39,427 bases of DNA. It comes from an uncultured Eubacteriales bacterium (GTDB taxonomy: Bacteria > Bacillota > Clostridia > Oscillospirales > Acutalibacteraceae). This document shows, one piece after another, positions 799 to 28,002 of the stretch. The stretch covers positions 1 to 39,427 of the forward strand of contig CASFEZ010000029.1 of assembly GCA_949293815.1 (NCBI GenBank), written 5' to 3'. The position numbers and the translations under genes are program-made. Below the pieces are notes generated by a model. The model was not told the DNA's origin, made no database searches, and worked only from the letters and a program-made list of their open reading frames with translations. Within the stretch, counting starts at the first letter, position 1. Each line of letters starts with the position of its first letter.

Positions 799-3700
799 TC
801 ACTTTCGGTTTTTTGGCAAATGGGCTTCCTCGGTATCGTCCGTTCCCTGCGGCGGGTACATTTCCTGCAAGGTGGATAAAAGCCATCCGGCTGCTCCGGT
901 ATACAGGCTCCATCCGCCCCGGCCTTCATAACCGTTCAGGGCGTAGATATCGCCGCTCAGGGCGTAGGGCTCGTTGCGGTAATCGCCGGTCAGCCCGTTT
1001 TCCTGAAGGCGGGTCATCGGGTTCAACGCCCGCAGCAGCTCTTCTGCTTCCTGCCGGAAGCCCTCCTGCCACAACGCCTTTAAGAACCAAACAGCGGCAT
1101 GGGTGTATTGTCCGCCGTTTTCCCGCACCCCCGGCGGATAAAAATTGACATAGCCGGTTCGTTTGCTTTCCGGCGTAAACGGCGGCCAAAATAACCGCAG
1201 CATTCGATTCGCCCGGTCATACAGCAGCTGCCATGCGCTTTTCAGCGCTGTGCGGCGGCGTTGCCGGTCTGGCAAATCCGCCAAAACCGCAAAGGTCTGG
1301 GGCAGCAGGTCAATTTGACAGGTTTTATTTCCTTTTGCGCCCATGGGCGTTCCATCGTCATAAAAAGCACGCAGGTACCATTCGCCGTCCCAGGCAGCTG
1401 TTTCCACCGCATCCGTCAGATCCTTTACGAGCTGCTCCAGCATTCCCGCTGTTTCACCGTCCCCGCGCTGGCGGCAAAGCGGTAAAAATGCCTTGGCTGT
1501 CATAATATAAAACATGGTCAGCCAAACGCTCTCCCCTTCCCCCTTTTCGCCCACGGCGCTATAAGAGTCGTTCCAATCCCCCGCGCCGATTTTCAAAAGA
1601 CCGTGCGTGCCTTTTTGACAGGCGCGGCGCAGCGCCCGCTTTGCGTGCTCATACAGCGTCGCTTTTTCCTCGCTTTGCCGGGGCGAAAAATACCGATCCG
1701 CCTCCCCGTCCCGCAGCGGTTCGCCCACAACAAACGGCAGCGGCACATCCAAAATCGCCGCGTCCGCCGTTTCTTTTATATATACCGCCGCCGCGTAAGG
1801 CAGCCAAAGCATATCATCGCTGCATCGTGTACGCACACCCCGCTTTTGCTGCCGCCCGCCGGGCAAAACCATATGCCACCAGTGCATCACATCCCCCTCC
1901 GGGAACTGGCTGGCGGCACTGCGGTACAGCTGCTCTTTCAGCAAAGCAGGCTGTATCGACACCAGGTTCATACAGTCCTGCAGCTGGTCACGGAAGCCGT
2001 ATGCGCCGCCGCACTGGTAAAAAGCACAGCGGGCAAATACGCGGGTACGCATGGTCTGATGCACCAAGTACCGGTTGGCAAAAGTTTGCAGCAGCGCATC
2101 ATCCGTTTGCAACACCGGCGCATATGGTTTTTGCGACGGCAGCGCCGCATCGGCAAGTATAACAGCGGCGTTCTCGCTCAAGCCGTAAGAAAGGCTGTAT
2201 TGCGCCTCCCATTCCGCTCCGGGCGCCAGGGTAAAGGGAATGGCAGCACTCACGCCTTCCGATAATGCAAGGGTTTTGCGGTACGGCAGCGATGGCAAAT
2301 AGGTCGCTCCGTTGCCCTGCAAATACAAATAGCCCTGGAAATCCGTCTGGTACGGGTTGGAAAACAGCACCCCGGCAGCCCGCTTGCGCCAGCATATGGT
2401 TTTACAGTAAGACAAATCCCGTCCCATCACCGGGCAAACGGTATAGTACAGCGTACCGCTGCAAACGGCACTGCCGGTATTTTTGACATGCACACAAAGT
2501 TTTTTGCGCAGTCCTTTCTCCGGCACGGAAACCGCCGCCGTGAACACCAGATTTTCCGCATGGCTCTTCCATTGTGCCCGCGCGTCACCGAGTACGGCGG
2601 CGGCGCCCGCTGTTAAATCCCAATGCTTCCCACCGATCTCCACGGATAAAATCTCACCCGCCGTGTCGGAATACGGGTCATTTATCCAGGGGGTCAGCTT
2701 GTTTTCCGCCGCGTTCATTGCCCAGGTGAATCCCAACGAGCGGTTGGACACCAAACAGCCGAAATTGCGGTTGGCCAGGGTGCGGCACCAAGGCACCGGC
2801 GGCTGCGTTACCACCAGGAAGCCTTCTGCGGTATCGCCGTTTTTATCGCCCCGGGGATTATAAGCCAGCGCCGCGAGCAAGGGAATCGGCTCTGCCGGCA
2901 TATCCGGCTGGTTTTTGGGATAAACCGCCTGCGCCAGTGCGTATAGGATATTCTCTGTGTCCGCGCCCAAAGAAGAACGCCGAAGCAAATGCACGCCGCC
3001 CTGATGCTTTTGCAGAAAACACCGCAAATCCTTTTGCGTTTCCGTTGCTTTTCCGCCGTTATCCGTATAAAGAATCGCCAAGTCATTGCGAAAACCACAG
3101 GCATTCAGCGCCGCACTGACAGCCGCAAAATCCTCTGCCGCCGCGCCGTCCTCCGTGCCGCAGTCAAAAACAAACAGCGCGTCATCACCGGAAATACCTG
3201 CCGCCCAAAGTCCGGCAATGCCGCCGCGATTGCGCTCGGCAAACGCTTGGTTCCGCCGGTGCGGACGAATGGCAAACAGAGAGTCACAAAGCAGCGATGA
3301 CATAATGGCATCCCGCCCGGGGCTTGCGGCAAATAACCTGCCCGCCGGCAAAAAGGCGCGGTTCTGTGCGCAAATCCATTGCTGCTGCGCCTCCCGGGGC
3401 GTTTTACCCGCTGCCAGCAGCAGAGAAAAACGCAGCTCTTTTTTTGCGCCGATGCGAAACGACGTCTTTGCAAAGAAACAGCCATCTGCTGCGCCGACAC
3501 GATTATTCAGCGTTGGATTTTTGGCAAACAGGGAGCCAATGCCCCCATCCGGCAAAAAGACCTCCTCCGGGTCGGTCGTGCAGGTATATGTCGCGTCCAA
3601 AAGTCCTGCCGCCAGCGCACACTCTGCTTTCTCCTGCCGTCTGGAAAAAATCAAACAATTGTCTTTCGCCGCATATTGCGACTGAATAAACAGCTTGGAA

Positions 3701-6700: not shown

Positions 6701-7758
6701 CCAAATTGCCCGTTCAGCCGGTCTATCATTTTTATCGCCGCTTCGGTATCGGTTTGATCCGACGGGGTTTCCACCTCACGGTTCGGCGCTAAATCTGCTA
6801 ACAGACAAACCACGGAAGCCGTTTGCCGGTTCGCCAGATACAATGTGCGCAAATGCGCTTCGGTTTGTTCCAATTCCGATGCTTTGGGCAGCATAGATGA
6901 AACAGCAATGACCACCTCGCTTTGTTGCCGTGCATATGTCTGCTCCATACGGAAAACCGGCGCGGGCTTTCTGCGCAGGGATGCGGTCATTCGCATAAGC
7001 AGCAAAATCATTTCCAGAACCGGCAAATACAACAGCACCCCAGCTGCCCAGTGCTGCAAAAGCATGCCCAATGCAAAACAGATACCCGCGGACAGAACAT
7101 AGGACAAAAGTATCAGCGCCATACCCTCTTTTTTTCTGCCCTTTCGCAGCGGCAGAAAAAAACCGCAATGCTTGCCCGCCGCGTCCGCCTGCCGCACAAT
7201 CTCGGCAGCATACGCCTCCTCTGAAATGCCCAGCTTTTTTGCCTGCTGTGCTGCTGTATGCAAATAAACCTGCTTGGTCTGCGGCTGCATGTATCTGTAA
7301 AGATTGGCTTTTTCCGCTGAAAAAATCAGGCTGACCCGGCAAAGCCGTTCTGTCAGAGACGGGAAGTGATAATCCTTCAAAACAAAAAAAGATTGCATTA
7401 CCTGACGCAGCACTGCATTCTGTTCCTGCGCAGCCGCCTCCGCCGCCCGCAGAACCAGGCAAAATAATACCGTATTGCGAAAATGTTCCGCCTGACTGAC
7501 CGAAAGGAAACCGTCCCATGCGTCTTCCAGTGCCTGCTGCCCGGGCAGTTTACCGCCCGGCAGCATTGCTTTTAATTTTTGGCAAAGCGCGTCAAACTCT
7601 CCGGTTTGCGAAAAAGCAGAAAAAGACGCAGGTCCCGCAGCCAAAGGGCGGCTTTCACGATATATTCCCTCGTACCAATCCAACGCCTCGCCGCCCTGAG
7701 ATGCCGCATAGCGCTTGATTTGACGCAGCGCCTTTTTCAACGGTTTTTCGTACCTCAT
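799..7758 (-). CDS. Cyclic beta-1,2-glucan synthase-like protein (GT84 / GH189 / GH94, NdvB/ChvB type)
   Basis: 2319 residues. Members of this family build linear beta-1,2-glucan from UDP-glucose with an N-terminal membrane glycosyltransferase, close it with a middle transglycosylase domain (GH189, Pfam glycoamylase) and trim it with a C-terminal GH94 phosphorylase domain. Visible here: membrane helices at about 213-255, 605-645 and 720-770; glycosyltransferase motifs LLDSDTEIP (about 414), SHDIAEG (about 528) and HRWIRGDMQ (about 562, the Q/RxxRW position); a glycoamylase-like region at about 790-1180 (WHGNLMNWYDIRTL, FVDSGNF); and a GH94 barrel at about 1230-2319 with GDWNDSYSAVG (about 2060) carrying the expected catalytic Asp. 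It is shorter than proteobacterial ChvB (about 2800). Start ATG 7758 follows AAAGGGTG. It is monocistronic, ending at the 748-791 hairpin. Whether the product is cyclic or linear cannot be read from sequence. Confidence 0.88.
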   Translation of the reverse strand: MRYEKPLKKALRQIKRYAASQGGEALDWYEGIYRESRPLAAGPASFSAFSQTGEFDALCQKLKAMLPGGKLPGQQALEDAWDGFLSVSQAEHFRNTVLFCLVLRAAEAAAQEQNAVLRQVMQSFFVLKDYHFPSLTERLCRVSLIFSAEKANLYRYMQPQTKQVYLHTAAQQAKKLGISEEAYAAEIVRQADAAGKHCGFFLPLRKGRKKEGMALILLSYVLSAGICFALGMLLQHWAAGVLLYLPVLEMILLLMRMTASLRRKPAPVFRMEQTYARQQSEVVIAVSSMLPKASELEQTEAHLRTLYLANRQTASVVCLLADLAPNREVETPSDQTDTEAAIKMIDRLNGQFGGKFVLCLRERSFSQTEQAYIGRERKRGAVLALTEYMTTGKHDFCVLHGDCQALLRSEYVMLLDSDTEIPFGALGDALAAAVHPLNHPELDNLTDMVRQGYGIFAPSAAPSVRSFSSTCFSRDMCRSGGIAAYDRTANDFYNDYFSDGIFCGKGLVHAGLFYKTMNERFRPERMLSHDIAEGLVLRVLSLTDMTLTDDFPKNETAYLKREHRWIRGDMQNLPLLRSKVWFFGKKTPSPFGFDAKYKLFDNLRRAVTPIAALAGILGSVFLPGKVGAAVAGICLLSNAFGDMVSGIGSLLRGGMRALSGLYKEDALPEALSAFLRAFLCMGRLAVEGLNALDAVVRSIWRMAVSKKHLLSWTTAAAADQMGGFYAVLLPRLPVLAAALFLAVFGGPMQRICSLFFVFDLFYAWFSQKPLRAAVPAFSGADREYLLSECAGMWRYFLDTFQAKYHYLPPDNISISPLPETAERTSPTNIGLALCVTLAARDFGFIDSRELYERLDLTLTTVEKLEKWHGNLMNWYDIRTLQVLAPGYVSFVDSGNFICCITALREGLYAYMSEEPRLGALAVRLGKLRGECDLSVFYNKNRKLFSIGYDCQSGAFSSSYYDLLMSEARMASFMAVADGQVDRAHWASLARTTAKCGRYSGALSWSGTMFEYFMPYLFLPSGKNTLSSESLWFCVKSQMRYAQKYHIPWGISESCFYAFNEQMQYHYQANGVPQTALKRFERQDLTVAPYATFLTLPFVPEESLQNLHRLEKYPIKGKYGFFEALDFTPSRTTAGQPSPVRCFMVHHLGMSLLAAENALHGMIWQKRLMRDLNASAAVGLLEEKIPADSFYYDAPAKEKPEPEKEKRRGKLPENLPSAVYTGGEMSGALHQSGCMAVTFQGFQLLRKTVSVSGAPGGIFAAMRTDKGLFPFTFAPCEDKTRQYTCRYRKNGAEYRSRSADFELVQTVQFHTQLSCMRVCFSIRNLTAAPQNGSLLIYFEPSLTRRNEETAHRTYSKLFIQSQYAAKDNCLIFSRRQEKAECALAAGLLDATYTCTTDPEEVFLPDGGIGSLFAKNPTLNNRVGAADGCFFAKTSFRIGAKKELRFSLLLAAGKTPREAQQQWICAQNRAFLPAGRLFAASPGRDAIMSSLLCDSLFAIRPHRRNQAFAERNRGGIAGLWAAGISGDDALFVFDCGTEDGAAAEDFAAVSAALNACGFRNDLAILYTDNGGKATETQKDLRCFLQKHQGGVHLLRRSSLGADTENILYALAQAVYPKNQPDMPAEPIPLLAALAYNPRGDKNGDTAEGFLVVTQPPVPWCRTLANRNFGCLVSNRSLGFTWAMNAAENKLTPWINDPYSDTAGEILSVEIGGKHWDLTAGAAAVLGDARAQWKSHAENLVFTAAVSVPEKGLRKKLCVHVKNTGSAVCSGTLYYTVCPVMGRDLSYCKTICWRKRAAGVLFSNPYQTDFQGYLYLQGNGATYLPSLPYRKTLALSEGVSAAIPFTLAPGAEWEAQYSLSYGLSENAAVILADAALPSQKPYAPVLQTDDALLQTFANRYLVHQTMRTRVFARCAFYQCGGAYGFRDQLQDCMNLVSIQPALLKEQLYRSAASQFPEGDVMHWWHMVLPGGRQQKRGVRTRCSDDMLWLPYAAAVYIKETADAAILDVPLPFVVGEPLRDGEADRYFSPRQSEEKATLYEHAKRALRRACQKGTHGLLKIGAGDWNDSYSAVGEKGEGESVWLTMFYIMTAKAFLPLCRQRGDGETAGMLEQLVKDLTDAVETAAWDGEWYLRAFYDDGTPMGAKGNKTCQIDLLPQTFAVLADLPDRQRRRTALKSAWQLLYDRANRMLRLFWPPFTPESKRTGYVNFYPPGVRENGGQYTHAAVWFLKALWQEGFRQEAEELLRALNPMTRLQENGLTGDYRNEPYALSGDIYALNGYEGRGGWSLYTGAAGWLLSTLQEMYPPQGTDDTEEAHLPKNRK

Positions 7759-7886
7759 GTAAACACCCTTTTGCTCTTTTTCTCATTAGTATTGCCACTG
7801 AGAGTAAAAAAATGTATGAGCGGATTGCGTCGGTTTGCTGAAAATGTAACGGAACACTGAATTTTGCGTTTTTTTTACAGGAGGGC

Positions 7887-7915
7887 TTGCGGCATTTTCT
7901 TTTATATGATACAAT
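7887..7915 (+). promoter_or_regulatory. Promoter for the 53-residue small protein
   Basis: TTGCGG (7887-7892), 17-base spacer, TACAAT (7910-7915). The GTG start lies about 32 bases downstream of the expected start site. Confidence 0.6.
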
Positions 7916-7953
7916 AGCTTTAGTCAATTTGTACAGAAAAGAGGTGGCATTGC

Positions 7954-8115
7954 GTGAATATCAACCAAATCATTACTTATTTGCTTTATATCATTCAGCT
8001 GGTGGAAAGAATCTTTTTGAAGTTCCTCAACCAATACGGCGATGGTGACTACTCCAGTTGGGACGATATTATGAACCCCACCACCACCGAACCCGTTGCG
8101 GAAACCACCGTATAA
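7954..8115 (+). CDS. 53-residue small protein with hydrophobic N-terminal helix
   Basis: A GTG at 7954 follows GAGGTGG (7941-7947) and a good promoter, and the frame runs to TAA at 8115. The protein has an amphipathic/hydrophobic first half (NINQIITYLLYIIQLVERIF), an acidic centre (GDGDYSSWDD) and a Thr/Glu tail (TTTEPVAETT). The pattern recalls the aromatic hydrophobic tail of the partial protein at the left edge, but the similarity is too weak to call homology. I do not recognise the family. The gene is followed after 9 bases by structured repeat copy A. Real expression is supported by the combination of promoter, RBS and downstream hairpins rather than by homology. Confidence 0.6.
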   Translation: MNINQIITYLLYIIQLVERIFLKFLNQYGDGDYSSWDDIMNPTTTEPVAETTV

Positions 8116-8124
8116 ACTGCAAAA

Positions 8125-8340
8125 CAGCCGGAGCTTTTGCCTTTTGCGCAAACCGAAAAGCAAAAGAATAAAAACAGAGACTGTCACACACAAATGGAAG
8201 CAGCAAAAAAGCTTTTATGTGCGGCAGTCTTTTTTTATAAAAAATAAAATTACTTTTCTAAGTGTGATCGCTCGCGGTACCATTGTACAGCTTTGGGGCA
8301 AAAAAACGCTTTCTACATCGAAATGAAGCTGCCCTTTTTT
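8125..8340 (+). repeat. Structured ~215-nt repeat, copy A
   Basis: Aligns along its length with 26965-27177. Both begin CAGCCG[G/A]AGC, share ACCGAAAAGCAAAAGAATAA, a central hairpin opening with GACTGT and closing with CAGTC (8179-8228 here), the loop GCAGCAAAAAAGC, CTTTTCTAAG, CGCTCGCGGTAC plus TGTACAGCT, and AACGCTTTCT, and end in a run of T. Copy A carries an extra A/T-rich stretch at 8228-8250. Both copies start 6-10 bases after the stop of a plus-strand gene and face a minus-strand gene, so a role as an elaborate 3' element or a small non-autonomous mobile element is possible. Confidence 0.8.
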
Positions 8341-8371
8341 ACTGTAGATAGCTCTGGCATAGCTTTTTCAG

Positions 8372-8411
8372 AAAAAAACTGCGTTTTCGGACAGATGCCG
8401 AAAACGCAGTT
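8372..8411 (-). terminator. Intrinsic terminator after rplL
   Basis: AACTGCGTTTTCGG (8377-8390) pairs with CCGAAAACGCAGTT (8398-8411), a 14-bp stem; on the minus strand it is followed by TTTTTTTC. It closes the ribosomal protein operon. Confidence 0.9.
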
Positions 8412-8432
8412 ATCTTCTTGAATAAAGCGAAC

Positions 8433-8810
8433 TTATTTAAGTTCCACTTTCGCACCGGCTGCTTCGAGTTTTTCCTTGGCAGCTTCAGCGTCGTCTTTGG
8501 ACATAGCTTCTTTCACGGTTTTGGGAGCGCCGTCAACAACCGCTTTCGCGTCGGCAAGACCAAGACCGGTAATTTCACGAACAACCTTAATAACGGCAAT
8601 TTTGTTCGCGCCGACTTCGGACAGAACCAGATCGAACTCGGTTTTCTCTTCAACAGCAGCGCCGGCGTCGGCAGCGGGAGCAGCAACAGCTACCGCAGCA
8701 GCGGCGGATACGCCGAATTTTTCTTCAACAGCGGACACGAGCTCGGAAAGCTCGAGTACGGAAAGTTCGCTGACAGCGTCAACGATAGCATTTATTTTAT
8801 CAGATGCCAT
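8433..8810 (-). CDS. rplL: 50S ribosomal protein L7/L12
   Basis: 125 residues, full length. L7/L12 forms the flexible stalk that recruits translation factors. The N-terminal dimerisation helix, Ala/Val-rich hinge ([16 protein letters not shown]) and C-terminal domain ([23 protein letters not shown]) are all present. An in-frame start five codons upstream exists, but the ATG at 8810 has GGAGG 7 bases before it and matches the family start MASDKINAI. It is the last gene of the operon; the strong hairpin at 8372-8411 follows at once and rpoB does not. Confidence 0.97.
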
Positions 8811-9432: not shown

Positions 9433-9464
9433 ATTATTTCACCTGCCTTTTGATTGATAAATAA

Positions 9465-9586
9465 AAGCCTTTCCCGCAAAACCGGGAAAGGCGTAAAAAC
9501 AGAATCATCCTGTCGTTTCGCGCAATTCCTCGGCAGGCGGTAAATAACCTTTATGCAAATATGCACCTGCTGTCTTAAGAACAGCT
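9465..9586 (-). ncRNA. Ribosomal protein L10 leader (autoregulatory, RF00557 type)
   Basis: The transcript upstream of rplJ has the known L10-leader order: a CCTGCCGAGG-type strand, a kinked region ending CGACAGGATGATTCTG, then a terminator-like hairpin GCCTTTCCCGG/CGGGAAAGGC (9467-9492) and a T-rich tail. In this family L10(L12)4 binding to the leader stops synthesis of L10/L12. Recognition is by sequence pattern; a covariance search was not run. Confidence 0.82.
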
Positions 9587-9591
9587 TAATT

Positions 9592-9620
9592 AGTATAGCA
9601 TGAACAAACGGGTTTGTCAA
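9592..9620 (-). promoter_or_regulatory. Strong promoter for rplJL
   Basis: Reading the minus strand: TTGACA (9615-9620), 17-base spacer, TATACT (9592-9597). A consensus vegetative promoter that lets rplJL be transcribed independently of rplKA. Confidence 0.9.
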
Positions 9621-25842: not shown

Positions 25843-26958
25843 ATGGAACAATTGATTTTTCGACCGAAGCTATACCGGTTTGACACCTGCGCCGCCTTTG
25901 CCGAAGCCTTTGCGCTGGGCAAGGACGATTTGGTGCTGACGCTGCATTCGGTCTTTACGCCTTATTTTGATACGGAAAAAACGCCGGTGCAAACCCTGTT
26001 TTTGGATGATTACGGCAAGGGGGAACCGACGGACGATGTGGTCAACGCGGTGATTCAGAAGGCGGCTGCGCTGACCTATACCCGCCTTGTTGCCATCGGC
26101 GGCGGTTCGGTACTGGACACGGCCAAGGTCATTGCCGTCAGCGAAGGGCGGCACACGGATGCGCTGTATGAAAACCGGGAAACGCTCAAAAAGTCCGTAC
26201 CGCTGGTTCTGGTGCCCACCACCTGCGGCACCGGCAGCGAGGTGACCAATATCGCCATTATGACCCGCCAAAAGCTCGGGGTGAAAATGGGTCTGACCAG
26301 CGAGGCGACCTACGGCGATTATGCGGTGCTGATCCCCGAACTTTTGAAGAGCATTCCCTTTTCGGTTTTTGCCACCAGCTCCATTGACGCACTGGTACAC
26401 GCGGTGGAATCCTATCTGTCGCCAAACGCCACGCCATACACCCGCATTTTGAGCAAAGAGGCCATTTGCCGGATCATCACTGGGTATCAGCAGCTGCTGC
26501 AGGCCGGGAAAGAGCACTTGCCGGAATTTACCGACCAATTTCTGTTCTCCGCCAATATCGCCGGTCTCGCGTTCGGCACAGCAGGCTGCGCGGCGGTACA
26601 CGCCATGAGCTATCCGCTCAGCGGCGTTTACCATGTAGCCCACGGCGAGAGTAACTACGCCATGTTCACCGGCGTTTTGAAAAAATATATGCAAATTCAA
26701 TCCGATGGTGCCATTGCCGCGCTGAACGAGCTGCTTTCGGAGCAGCTGCACTGCGAGGTGGGCGCGGTTTATGACGAGCTGGAGAACCTTTTGAACCGGC
26801 TGCTGCCGAAAAAAGCGCTGCACGAATACGGCGTCAAGCCCGAAGAACTGCCCGTCTTTGCCGAAAATGTAATTGCCACCCAGCAGCGGCTGATGAAAAA
26901 CAGCTTTGTCCCCTTAAACGAGGAAACGGTGCTGGACATTTACCGGAATCTGTATTAA
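25843..26958 (+). CDS. 4-hydroxybutyrate dehydrogenase (iron-containing alcohol dehydrogenase)
   Basis: 371 residues, the same length as the Clostridium kluyveri enzyme (4hbD), which it resembles from end to end: the FDTCAAFAEAFALGKDDLVLT start, GEPTDDVVN, IGGGSVLDTAK (85-95, NAD binding), VPTTCGTGSEVTN (about 123-135), DALVHAVESYLSPNATPYT, and GCAAVHAMSYPLSGVYHVAHGE, which carries metal-binding histidines. The enzyme interconverts succinate semialdehyde and 4-hydroxybutyrate, a step on the way from succinate or GABA to butyrate. No CoA transferase or 4-hydroxybutyryl-CoA dehydratase gene is adjacent. RBS AAGGAGCGAG. Followed after 6 bases by structured repeat copy B. Confidence 0.9.
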   Translation: MEQLIFRPKLYRFDTCAAFAEAFALGKDDLVLTLHSVFTPYFDTEKTPVQTLFLDDYGKGEPTDDVVNAVIQKAAALTYTRLVAIGGGSVLDTAKVIAVSEGRHTDALYENRETLKKSVPLVLVPTTCGTGSEVTNIAIMTRQKLGVKMGLTSEATYGDYAVLIPELLKSIPFSVFATSSIDALVHAVESYLSPNATPYTRILSKEAICRIITGYQQLLQAGKEHLPEFTDQFLFSANIAGLAFGTAGCAAVHAMSYPLSGVYHVAHGESNYAMFTGVLKKYMQIQSDGAIAALNELLSEQLHCEVGAVYDELENLLNRLLPKKALHEYGVKPEELPVFAENVIATQQRLMKNSFVPLNEETVLDIYRNLY

Positions 26959-26964
26959 AAAATC

Positions 26965-27177
26965 CAGCCGAAGCAAAAGGGCTGTTGCCTTTCGCGCAGA
27001 CCGAAAAGCAAAAGAATAAAACATGGACTGTTACACGTAAATGGATGCAGCAAAAAAGCATTTATGTGCGACAGTCCTTGCTTTTCTAAGCGTTTTTTCG
27101 CCCGCTCGCGGTACTTTTGTACAGCTTCGGGGCGAAGAAAACGCTTTCTGCATCAAAAGGCAACAGCCCTTTTTTTA
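26965..27177 (+). repeat. Structured ~215-nt repeat, copy B
   Basis: Homologous to 8125-8340. Here the outer stem is perfect: AAAGGGCTGTTGCCTTT near 26977 pairs with AAAGGCAACAGCCCTTT near 27155, then T-run. The central hairpin (GACTGTTACACGTAAATG / CATTTATGTGCGACAGTC, 27026-27076) tolerates G-U pairs at positions that differ from copy A. A second domain pairs AAGCGTTTTTTCGCCC with GGGGCGAAGAAAACGCTT around a GTAC-TTTT-GTAC tip. It overlaps the last 3 bases of the minus-strand gene. Confidence 0.8.
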
Positions 27178-28002
27178 AGCGGTTTGTTTTCGCTTTCTGC
27201 GGCGCTTGACGATTGCGCGGATCATAAGAACAAGCACCACGATGATTACAATCGGAAGCAAGAACCGCAAGGCAAACAGCAATATCATGCGCAGCGGCTC
27301 CGGTCGGTTTTCATAATTGACATAATAGAGGGGCGCAGGGGAATCCAAATCCGGTTCCCGTTCCGCATCGGTTGGCAGCAGATAAAAAACCATGGCGCCG
27401 CCGACCTGCCGGGCAAAGGTCTTCATTGGCGTCTGGGCGCTAAGGGAGCCATGGCTTATATCCGCCAGAACCGGACTCGCGCTGTGGCACAGCCAGGGCG
27501 ATGCGTCATTCGGGCGGTAAGCGGAGATAAAGTAAAAGGAATCCTGATCATAGAGATAGTCCTCCCGCGCCCAGGAAACATGAAGCAAGTTGGCGTCCTC
27601 GCCGCGGAAAAACGGCTTGCCCGGCGCCCACTGCCAGCGCACGCAAACCGCAAGCCCGGTCAAATAGCCGGTTTGCGGATCTGCCATGACCGCCGCCGCG
27701 CTTTGCATTTGCATGTCGTTCTGATTGACGCTGCAAATTCCCTTCTCTGTGCTGATGCGCAGCACCTCGCTGCCCGGCACGGTTTGCAGCGAGGACAGCA
27801 CCGCGCTGACGGTCTGCTGCGTCATGCCCTGCAAAAAATCCGCCGGATACCCGAGCGCCAACAGATCCTCTACACTGCCCGTTTCCACCGGCAGGGATGT
27901 GGTGCCCTCCTCCAGAGTGGCGTCCGCCGCTGCGGCGGGACAGACAAAAGCATTCAACAAAAGAGTCAAAATAAGAAAACAACATAAGACCACACGCTTC
28001 AT
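27175..28002 (-). CDS. Secreted/membrane-anchored protein with signal peptide and C-terminal helix, unknown function
   Basis: 275 residues. Signal peptide at 1-26 (VVLCCFLILTLLLNAFVCPAAA with an AAA-type cleavage site), an extracellular domain of about 210 residues with no motif I recognise, then a membrane helix at about 240-262 (LLPIVIIVVLVLMIRAIV) and a strongly basic tail RRRKRKQTA. This is the layout of a type I anchored surface protein. The ATG at 28002 follows AAAGGAGG. Its stop lies in the T-tail of structured repeat copy B. Confidence 0.75.
   Translation of the reverse strand: MKRVVLCCFLILTLLLNAFVCPAAAADATLEEGTTSLPVETGSVEDLLALGYPADFLQGMTQQTVSAVLSSLQTVPGSEVLRISTEKGICSVNQNDMQMQSAAAVMADPQTGYLTGLAVCVRWQWAPGKPFFRGEDANLLHVSWAREDYLYDQDSFYFISAYRPNDASPWLCHSASPVLADISHGSLSAQTPMKTFARQVGGAMVFYLLPTDAEREPDLDSPAPLYYVNYENRPEPLRMILLFALRFLLPIVIIVVLVLMIRAIVKRRRKRKQTA

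What the first reader, a model, noticed from the sequence alone, without database searches (positions are those of the whole stretch)
8125..8340. A ~215-nt structured element present twice, each time behind a plus-strand gene facing a minus-strand gene
The copy at 8125-8340 and that at 26965-27177 share blocks over their whole length and a common plan: outer stem, central GACTGT/CAGTC hairpin with the GCAGCAAAAAAGC loop, a second domain tipped by GTAC-N4-GTAC, and a terminal T-run. Stems differ in sequence but remain paired, with wobble and compensating changes (outer stem perfect in copy B, different yet still partly paired in copy A). Both copies begin 6-10 bases after a stop codon. This is more than a terminator needs; it may be an undescribed RNA family, a 3'-UTR-derived RNA or a structured non-autonomous mobile element.
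Basis: partly seen in the sequence, partly recalled or inferred. Interest (0 to 1): 0.75.

Follow-up and report, generated by a model that had tools for sequence, protein, structure and literature searches.

The report
Mobile hairpin elements at gene terminators
The two look-alike stretches are copies of a small, protein-free, strongly folding repeat that has spread through the genomes of certain gut bacteria by landing at the stop signals behind genes, and one subfamily duplicates the stop-signal hairpin when it inserts.

Summary
Both copies are real, about 72-77% alike, start 6-15 bases behind a stop codon, and copy B folds far better than shuffles (z -9.5). They belong to a repeat family: 18 matches at E<1e-6 in the host genome. 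A covariance model of the second hairpin finds relatives in 16 of 150 family and 21 of 394 order genomes, but only the host itself among 398 genomes sampled from the phylum. That hairpin covaries. Rfam has no match. Best explanation: a non-autonomous, MITE-like DNA element aimed at terminators. In three groups of relatives 0 of 62 sites are divergent and 0 of 76 lie in genes; in the host 1 of 17 is divergent, a fragment. Some relatives carry near-identical copies. In a sister subfamily (CAG..TGTCGA ends) 21 of 23 loci have an abutting target duplication, usually a whole 20-29 bp terminator-like hairpin. The window's own GGGGCTG subtype shows no duplication (0 of 14 loci); its mobility rests on copy spread and one filled/empty comparison. 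Reverse transcriptase, Y1 transposase and Cas1 do not track the element: the mobiliser is unknown. Closest precedent: YPAL of Yersinia.

The parts
8125..8340 (+). Copy A of the element (GGGGCTG subtype), decayed outer stem and decayed lower part of arm 2
8113..8115 (+). Stop codon of the short plus-strand ORF (7954-8115, own gene call) before copy A
8178..8231 (+). Arm 1 hairpin of copy A (GACTGTC..GCAGCAAAAAAGC..GGCAGTC)
8260..8312 (+). Arm 2 hairpin of copy A, tip GTAC-N4-GTAC; covariance-model R1 match, 38 bits, E 1.8e-6
8377..8411 (-). Separate ordinary terminator-like hairpin of the facing minus-strand gene (rplL by eye), not part of the element
26965..27177 (+). Copy B of the element (GGGGCTG subtype), complete three-way-junction fold
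26956..26958 (+). Stop codon of the plus-strand ORF before copy B
26973..26992 (+). Outer stem, 5' arm (copy B)
27025..27077 (+). Arm 1 hairpin (copy B)
27088..27147 (+). Arm 2 hairpin (copy B), R1 match 87.7 bits, E 3.0e-20; the part shared by all subfamilies
27150..27176 (+). Outer stem, 3' arm, and T-run (27170-27176)
27175..27177 (-). Stop codon of the facing minus-strand ORF, overlapping copy B's T-run

Best explanation
The two copies are members of a superfamily of about 100-250 bp, protein-free (MITE-like) mobile DNA elements. Its hallmark is a conserved hairpin (arm 2) with tip [G/A]GTAY-N4-RTAC between CTCG and CTTCGG. Other parts (outer stem, arm 1) differ between subfamilies; where both arms are present they form a three-way-junction plan. 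Shown: the elements are multi-copy, sit almost only at gene 3' ends, and have near-identical copies in some genomes. Shown for the CAG..TGTCGA-ended subfamily: the element lies between two direct copies of one locus-specific stretch, usually a whole terminator-like hairpin (20-29 bp), abutting the element ends. Inferred: an unidentified transposase or integrase acts on terminators while they are extruded as hairpins, cuts the two strands on either side of the hairpin base and joins the element there, so that gap filling duplicates the hairpin whatever its length. Inferred: gene ends tolerate the insert because the GGGGCTG subtype ends in a GC stem plus T-run and can replace the terminator. For the window's own GGGGCTG subtype, mobility is inferred from copy spread, sister copies in SIG582 and one filled/empty comparison; no target duplication was found.
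For: Copies: 18 own-genome places E<1e-6; SIG583 51 arm-2 matches. Distribution (own genome counted): 16 of 150, 21 of 394 in six families, 1 of 398. Pairing: 8 of 22 pairs and 29 cells changed on both sides in 18 sequences, 0 of 500 shuffles as high; 17 of 22 pairs and 396 cells in 137 distinct rows, 0 of 500 (model-fitted, opposite-strand rows included). Duplication: 24 parsed rows, one a mis-parse of a locus also listed correctly; 21 of the other 23 loci, in six assemblies, score >=24 (19 score >=30), against 7 (and 1) of 552 mismatched pairs; 19 of 21 duplicated stretches fold as a clear hairpin. A further locus, L302 in G128, scores 39. Sites in SIG583, SIG582 and SIG595/596/RGIG6294: 34 convergent, 28 tandem, 0 divergent of 62 with both neighbours called; 0 of 76 with arm 2 inside a called gene. 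Element-free gaps: divergent 25 of 84, convergent 9 of 84; Fisher p 3e-6 and 2e-8 for SIG583+SIG582. Recent spread: 16 of 23 SIG583 cores have a sister >=97% identical, tandem neighbours included. Filled/empty pair: SIG577 has an element 3 nt behind a stop where SIG583 has a plain terminator-like hairpin (by eye).
Against: No autonomous element or transposase with the same ends was found. The GGGGCTG subtype shows no target duplication: with corrected ends 0 of 7 G000 and 0 of 7 SIG582 loci reach score 24, and they score no better than mismatched pairs (an earlier version had several wrong 5' ends). G502 could not be parsed in either script. G000 copies are only 65-93% alike, so not recently mobile. 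In the own genome one of 17 sites with both neighbours called is divergent (L018, a fragment without an arm-2 match). Two of 23 CAG-type loci (L043, L073) show no duplication, and L135 and L142 only 13 bp. Two 3'-truncated copies still have duplications (L229, L230), which a two-ended DDE reaction would not readily give. In L112 and L136 the loop is inverted between the copies. In one search the measure 'further pair types' is not exceptional (63 of 500 shuffles reach it).
Confidence: 0.74

Rival explanations
1. A functional structured RNA family (3'-UTR-derived RNA or elaborate terminator) kept by selection at gene ends.
For: Covariation. Copy B fold z -9.5. Position behind stop codons. In SIG595/SIG596/RGIG6294 the 7 tandem sites are all sense (two-sided p 0.016), and by eye the core differs less than its flanks. 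The short-hairpin scan finds no other terminator around copy B.
Against: Near-identical copies behind unrelated genes. Hairpin duplications around the element. 10 sense against 11 antisense tandem sites in SIG583 plus SIG582. A.C cells outnumber G.U cells outside one fixed position, 90 to 34. No promoter-like site around either window copy. No Rfam match. Patchy distribution.
Confidence: 0.15
2. REP-like element moved by a RAYT/Y1 (HUH) transposase.
For: Palindromic, intergenic, tandem arrays. RAYT-like single genes in RGIG6294, SIG596 and SIG582.
Against: Y1 matches in 11 of 18 genomes, three of them without element matches (G008, G018, G022), and none in SIG595, G009, G024, G128; SIG583 with 51 arm-2 matches has only a 98-codon fragment. 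No arm 2 in any of 11 Y1/RT loci examined. The long duplications do not fit HUH chemistry as I know it (recalled).
Confidence: 0.05
3. Retroelement-like copying of an RNA into terminators (as group IIC introns target stem-loops).
For: Stem-loop target; truncated copies ending at the arm-2 tip yet flanked by duplications. Two element-rich genomes, SIG582 and RGIG7726, do have an RVT_1 match.
Against: RVT_1 in only 3 of 18 genomes and none in SIG583, SIG595 or SIG596. No group II intron Rfam match in 20 loci.
Confidence: 0.04
4. Insertion by a Cas1-like integrase that duplicates a hairpin as CRISPR adaptation duplicates a repeat.
For: Same topology: a palindromic 20-30 bp unit is duplicated around the insert. 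Cas1 matches exist in G006 and, as a weak fragment, G128, both with duplications.
Against: No Cas1 match in SIG583, RGIG7726, G005 or G024, all with duplications; 7 of 19 genomes have one, without relation to the element.
Confidence: 0.02

Closest known systems
YPAL / RU-2 of Yersinia (review PMC2229807, section 11 and passages read; original De Gregorio et al. 2006 not seen)
   Same: About 168 bp, palindromic, mobile, intergenic; target duplications of variable length (3-26 bp); targets span or adjoin dyad symmetry.
   Different: Other phylum; no sequence comparison was made. Here the duplicated unit is usually a whole terminator-like hairpin, and several subfamilies share one hairpin.
MITEs, including BOX/RUP/SPRITE of Streptococcus pneumoniae (review PMC10969869, passages seen)
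   Same: Short, multi-copy, intergenic, terminal repeats in the CAG..TGTCGA subfamily, nesting.
   Different: No partner transposase identified; long hairpin-shaped duplication instead of a short fixed one; covariation in an internal hairpin.
Group IIC introns (PMC10190682, abstract and passages seen)
   Same: Target a DNA stem-loop (their preference for terminators is recalled).
   Different: No reverse transcriptase pattern and no intron match here; hairpin duplicated.
IS1202 group (PMC10132070, passages seen)
   Same: Unusually long target duplications, 16-28 bp.
   Different: Full insertion sequences with a transposase (about 1.5 kb in Acinetobacter); no target found for the long-duplication group; Acinetobacter members have 5'-TGT ends, here CAG.
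Intrinsic terminators
   Same: GC stem plus T-run right behind a stop codon.
   Different: About 200-nt branched structure, repeated across the genome.

Membership tests
MITE (non-autonomous DNA transposon) | Short, multi-copy, too small for a transposase gene | tested here: met
   About 190-250 bp; 18 own-genome places, 51 arm-2 matches in SIG583
MITE (non-autonomous DNA transposon) | Terminal inverted repeats | tested here: met
   CAG..TGTCGA.AA at both ends in one subfamily; long outer inverted repeat in the GGGGCTG subtype
MITE (non-autonomous DNA transposon) | Target-site duplication | tested here: inconclusive
   Met in the CAG..TGTCGA subfamily, 21 of 23 loci; not met in the GGGGCTG subtype of the window, 0 of 14 loci
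MITE (non-autonomous DNA transposon) | Autonomous partner with the same ends | tested here: not met
   None found in end-pattern scans of SIG583, RGIG7726, G005 or G000, SIG582, G009, G005, SIG583; assemblies incomplete
Known Rfam family | Match above gathering score | tested here: not met
   Window and 20 loci: no match on the element. Permissive scan of 7700-8500: on the element the best by E-value is DUF805b, 19.8 against 35.6 bits, E 0.006 for that small search
REP/RAYT system | Y1 transposase gene associated with the repeats | tested here: not met
Group IIC intron | Reverse transcriptase / intron RNA | tested here: not met
CRISPR adaptation / casposon | Cas1 integrase present in active genomes | tested here: not met
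IS1202 family | TnsB-like transposase | tested here: inconclusive
   PF09299 rang in none of 19 genomes and in no control
YPAL | Homologous sequence | not tested
   No YPAL sequence was fetched

The most novel reading that the evidence does not exclude
A mobility machinery of a kind not yet described recognises the shape of extruded terminator hairpins rather than sequence, cuts on the two sides of the hairpin base and so duplicates the terminator hairpin. The conserved arm-2 hairpin is its recognition or processing site; the five arm-2 halves I found without a normal right half all break or carry an insert at that tip.
Probability: 0.3. Interest if true: 0.82.

Novelty: new variant of a known kind. 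Interest (0 to 1): 0.62.

Why it matters
Terminators are natural safe landing sites, yet I know of few mobile elements that aim at them. A target duplication that usually equals a whole hairpin would make structure-directed transposition testable. The GGGGCTG subtype may also serve as the terminator of its host genes, so it links mobile DNA to gene-end architecture in gut Clostridia. The family has no Rfam match and I found no description of it; the held library (PMC open-licence papers only) was searched.

Tried and rejected
Reverse transcriptase, Y1 transposase and Cas1 as mobiliser: tested over 18, 18 and 19 genomes, do not track. Mu-transpos_C: uninformative, controls silent. Autonomous element with CAG..TGTCGA or GGGGCTG ends: leads followed gave truncated copies, contig ends, coding-sequence chance hits, an IS3-like insertion (L270; IS3 naming recalled) and bare GGGGCTGTTGC hairpins (L262, L265, L271, L273, L275, L276), some of which look like internal deletions of the element. 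Viral contigs: 0 exact matches to one pattern. Gene conversion alone as the reason for near-identical copies: not excluded for SIG582, where interiors match better than 5' ends, but it does not explain the hairpin duplications. Sense-RNA selection from wobble bias: suggested by the 11 sequences, not borne out in 111 sequences.

Dropped or corrected rows: one search listed 24 rows, one (L208, n=1) a wrong parse of a tandem locus also listed correctly; I count 23. One search had wrong 5' ends for at least L005, L006, L031, L013 and L100; one search replaces it for seven G000 and seven SIG582 loci and again failed for G502. In one search, 29 rows lacked the right-half pattern and 21 the left-half pattern, against 84 full arms; reading the 29, five truly lack a normal right half (L011, L146, L229, L230, L231) and L010 is decayed past the tip; of the 21 I read only L014, L017 and L231 as clear half-arms. 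Scripts 68 (timed out), 69 and 70 were superseded.

Full report
What is there. The two window copies exist as described. Copy B folds into an outer stem, a first hairpin and a second hairpin at -99.4 kcal/mol, z -9.5; copy A folds less well, -57.4, z -2.8. Both lie just behind a plus-strand stop codon and face a minus-strand ORF. In copy B the facing ORF's stop codon falls inside the element's T-run, and a pattern scan for short terminators finds none in 26900-27260 (the scan cannot see a stem as branched as the element's own). At copy A the facing gene has its own terminator-like hairpin at 8377-8411.

A repeat family, not a pair. Copy A as query finds 18 places at E<1e-6 in the own genome, itself and copy B included. 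Copy B finds matches at E<=0.001 in 9 of 40 genomes, the own genome included. The part shared most widely is the second hairpin (arm 2). A covariance model of it (R1, 18 sequences) gives matches at E<=1e-4 in 16 of 150 genomes of the family, 21 of 394 of the order, in six families, and only the own genome of 398 in a phylum sample. These counts include the own genome, the samples overlap, and large searches use stricter filters. All 59 stretches from an exact pattern scan of named genomes carry titles of uncultured Oscillospiraceae or Clostridia, many from ruminant gut; the same exact pattern has no match in viral contigs. Rfam has no match on the element.

Pairing is conserved. In the seed alignment 8 of 22 arm-2 pairs show changes on both sides (29 cells, 0 of 500 shuffles as high); one measure, the number of further pair types, is not exceptional (63 of 500). 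In a larger model-fitted alignment 17 of 22 pairs do (396 cells, 0 of 500), including the GTAC/GTAC to GTAT/ATAC change at the tip. That alignment is fitted to the structure and contains opposite-strand matches of the same places, so the size of the effect is inflated; the seed alignment is not so fitted, though I wrote its structure from the same sequences. Among 111 distinct sense rows, outside one position fixed as U.G (91 G.U cells), A.C cells (90, of which 24 at one possibly misaligned pair) outnumber G.U cells (34). That is not what a sense-strand RNA constraint should leave, and points to the hairpin mattering as DNA or on either strand. Related sequences are not independent, so I treat this as a hint.

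It inserts at gene ends. In SIG583, SIG582 and the trio SIG595/SIG596/RGIG6294, 62 sites have both neighbours called: 34 convergent, 28 tandem, 0 divergent; in 0 of 76 sites does arm 2 lie inside a called gene (home-made gene caller, sites found by a regular expression, tandem copies merged). Element-free gaps of at least 60 nt in the fetched SIG583 and SIG582 loci are divergent in 25 of 84 and convergent in 9 of 84; Fisher p 3e-6 and 2e-8 against the 49 sites of those two genomes. Reading the own genome, the 18 places are 9 convergent, 7 tandem, 1 divergent (L018, a fragment without an arm-2 match) and 1 with one neighbour missing. Tandem sites are 10 sense and 11 antisense in SIG583 plus SIG582, but 7 to 0 in the trio.

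One subfamily duplicates its target. Elements ending CAGACTGTCGATAAAG...TTTTCGACAAGCTG lie between two copies of a locus-specific stretch. Of 24 parsed rows one is a wrong parse; 21 of the 23 loci, in six assemblies (SIG583, RGIG7726, RGIG9411, G005, G006, G024), have a duplication of 13-29 bp (local score >=24) that abuts both element ends within 2 bases. Mismatched left/right pairs reach that score in 7 of 552. In 19 of the 21 the stretch folds as a clear hairpin, and the right copy is often followed by a T-rich stretch, as in an intrinsic terminator (by eye; not in every locus). L135 covers only one arm and the loop; L043 and L073 show no duplication. A further locus in G128 (L302) has one too. 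The length follows the hairpin, so a fixed stagger is unlikely; cutting on both sides of an extruded hairpin would give this. That step is inference. In L112 and L136 the loop is inverted between the copies and in L049 one copy carries a compensated pair change; I cannot explain these.

Recent spread and age. In SIG583 16 of 23 element cores have a sister at least 97% identical, tandem neighbours included, and SIG583 has 51 arm-2 matches. Copies in the window's genome are 65-93% alike, median 78%, in 10 full copies, hence older. Three loci could be compared between close species and carry the element in both; since every locus in that comparison was fetched because it held the pattern, this is biased towards presence. 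One filled/empty pair: SIG577 has an element 3 nt behind a stop where SIG583 has a plain terminator-like hairpin (by eye). Three further neighbour comparisons show orthologous genes without the element but no clean empty site.

The window's subtype. GGGGCTG-type elements show no target duplication: 0 of 7 G000 and 0 of 7 SIG582 loci reach score 24, and none of 42 mismatched pairs in each set does. G502, with 12 copies of this type, could not be parsed. The outer stem is often followed by a T-run and occupies the terminator place. Bare GGGGCTGTTGC hairpins occur behind genes; some look like deletion remnants of the element. Whether this subtype moves by the same machinery is unproven; it shares arm 2 and the site preference.

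Breakage at the tip. Of 29 rows flagged as lacking the right half of arm 2 (84 arms are full), five really do by my reading, and all five break or carry an insert within a few bases of the tip (L011, L146, L229, L230, L231). L014 and L017 keep only the right half, starting just behind the tip. L229 and L230 are still flanked by duplications of about 30 bp (by eye). Hairpin-tip cleavage would explain the breakpoints; this is inference.

Mobiliser. Y1 transposases (11 of 18 genomes), reverse transcriptases (3 of 18) and Cas1 (7 of 19) do not follow the element. End-pattern scans found no larger element with the same ends. Assemblies are incomplete and often break at element copies, so an autonomous partner may be missing.

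Known relatives. The nearest precedent is YPAL of Yersinia: about 168 bp, mobile, target duplications of 3-26 bp, targets at dyad symmetry (PMC2229807, section 11 read; the original paper not seen). Group IIC introns bind a DNA stem-loop target (PMC10190682, passages) and IS1202-group elements give 16-28 bp duplications (PMC10132070, passages). None fits in full, so I file this as a new variant of the MITE kind, with membership unproven on the points of a partner transposase and, for the window's subtype, of a target duplication.

Noticed in passing
window 9452-9597 (-): Ribosomal protein L10 leader (Rfam RF00557, 71.5 bits), the expected regulator of the rplJ-rplL operon beside copy A.
   Followed up: no
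L243 about 2120-2200 (reverse strand) and L246 about 2450-2530 (SIG583): A terminator-like hairpin followed by CAGACTGTCGAAAAA and then a second, different hairpin, with no element between: perhaps a footprint or another element with the same ends.
   Followed up: partly
L231 about 110-400 (RGIG7726): A roughly 280-nt insert with complementary ends sits in the arm-2 tip of an element copy.
   Followed up: partly
L216 (SIG595), L214 (SIG595), L106 (RGIG6294): Tandem arrays of arm-2 units at about 100-110 bp spacing, at least 8 units in L216; the last unit in L214 ends at the hairpin tip.
   Followed up: partly
L112 and L136 (SIG583): The loop of the duplicated hairpin is inverted between left and right copy.
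   Followed up: no
L253, L254, L255: Single RAYT-like Y1 transposase genes (naming by eye), with no arm 2 in the same locus.
   Followed up: partly
L270 (SIG583): An IS3-like insertion (recalled from its start sequence) in arm 1 of a GGGGCTG element at a contig end.
   Followed up: no
L129 3157-5031 and L141 2318-5548 (SIG595) against SIG596: 1.9 and 3.2 kb insertions close to element copies in SIG595 but not SIG596; no transposase recognised by eye.
   Followed up: partly
L018 (own genome, C13:40575-40655): An element fragment with arm 1 only between two genes called divergent, the one such site in the own genome.
   Followed up: no
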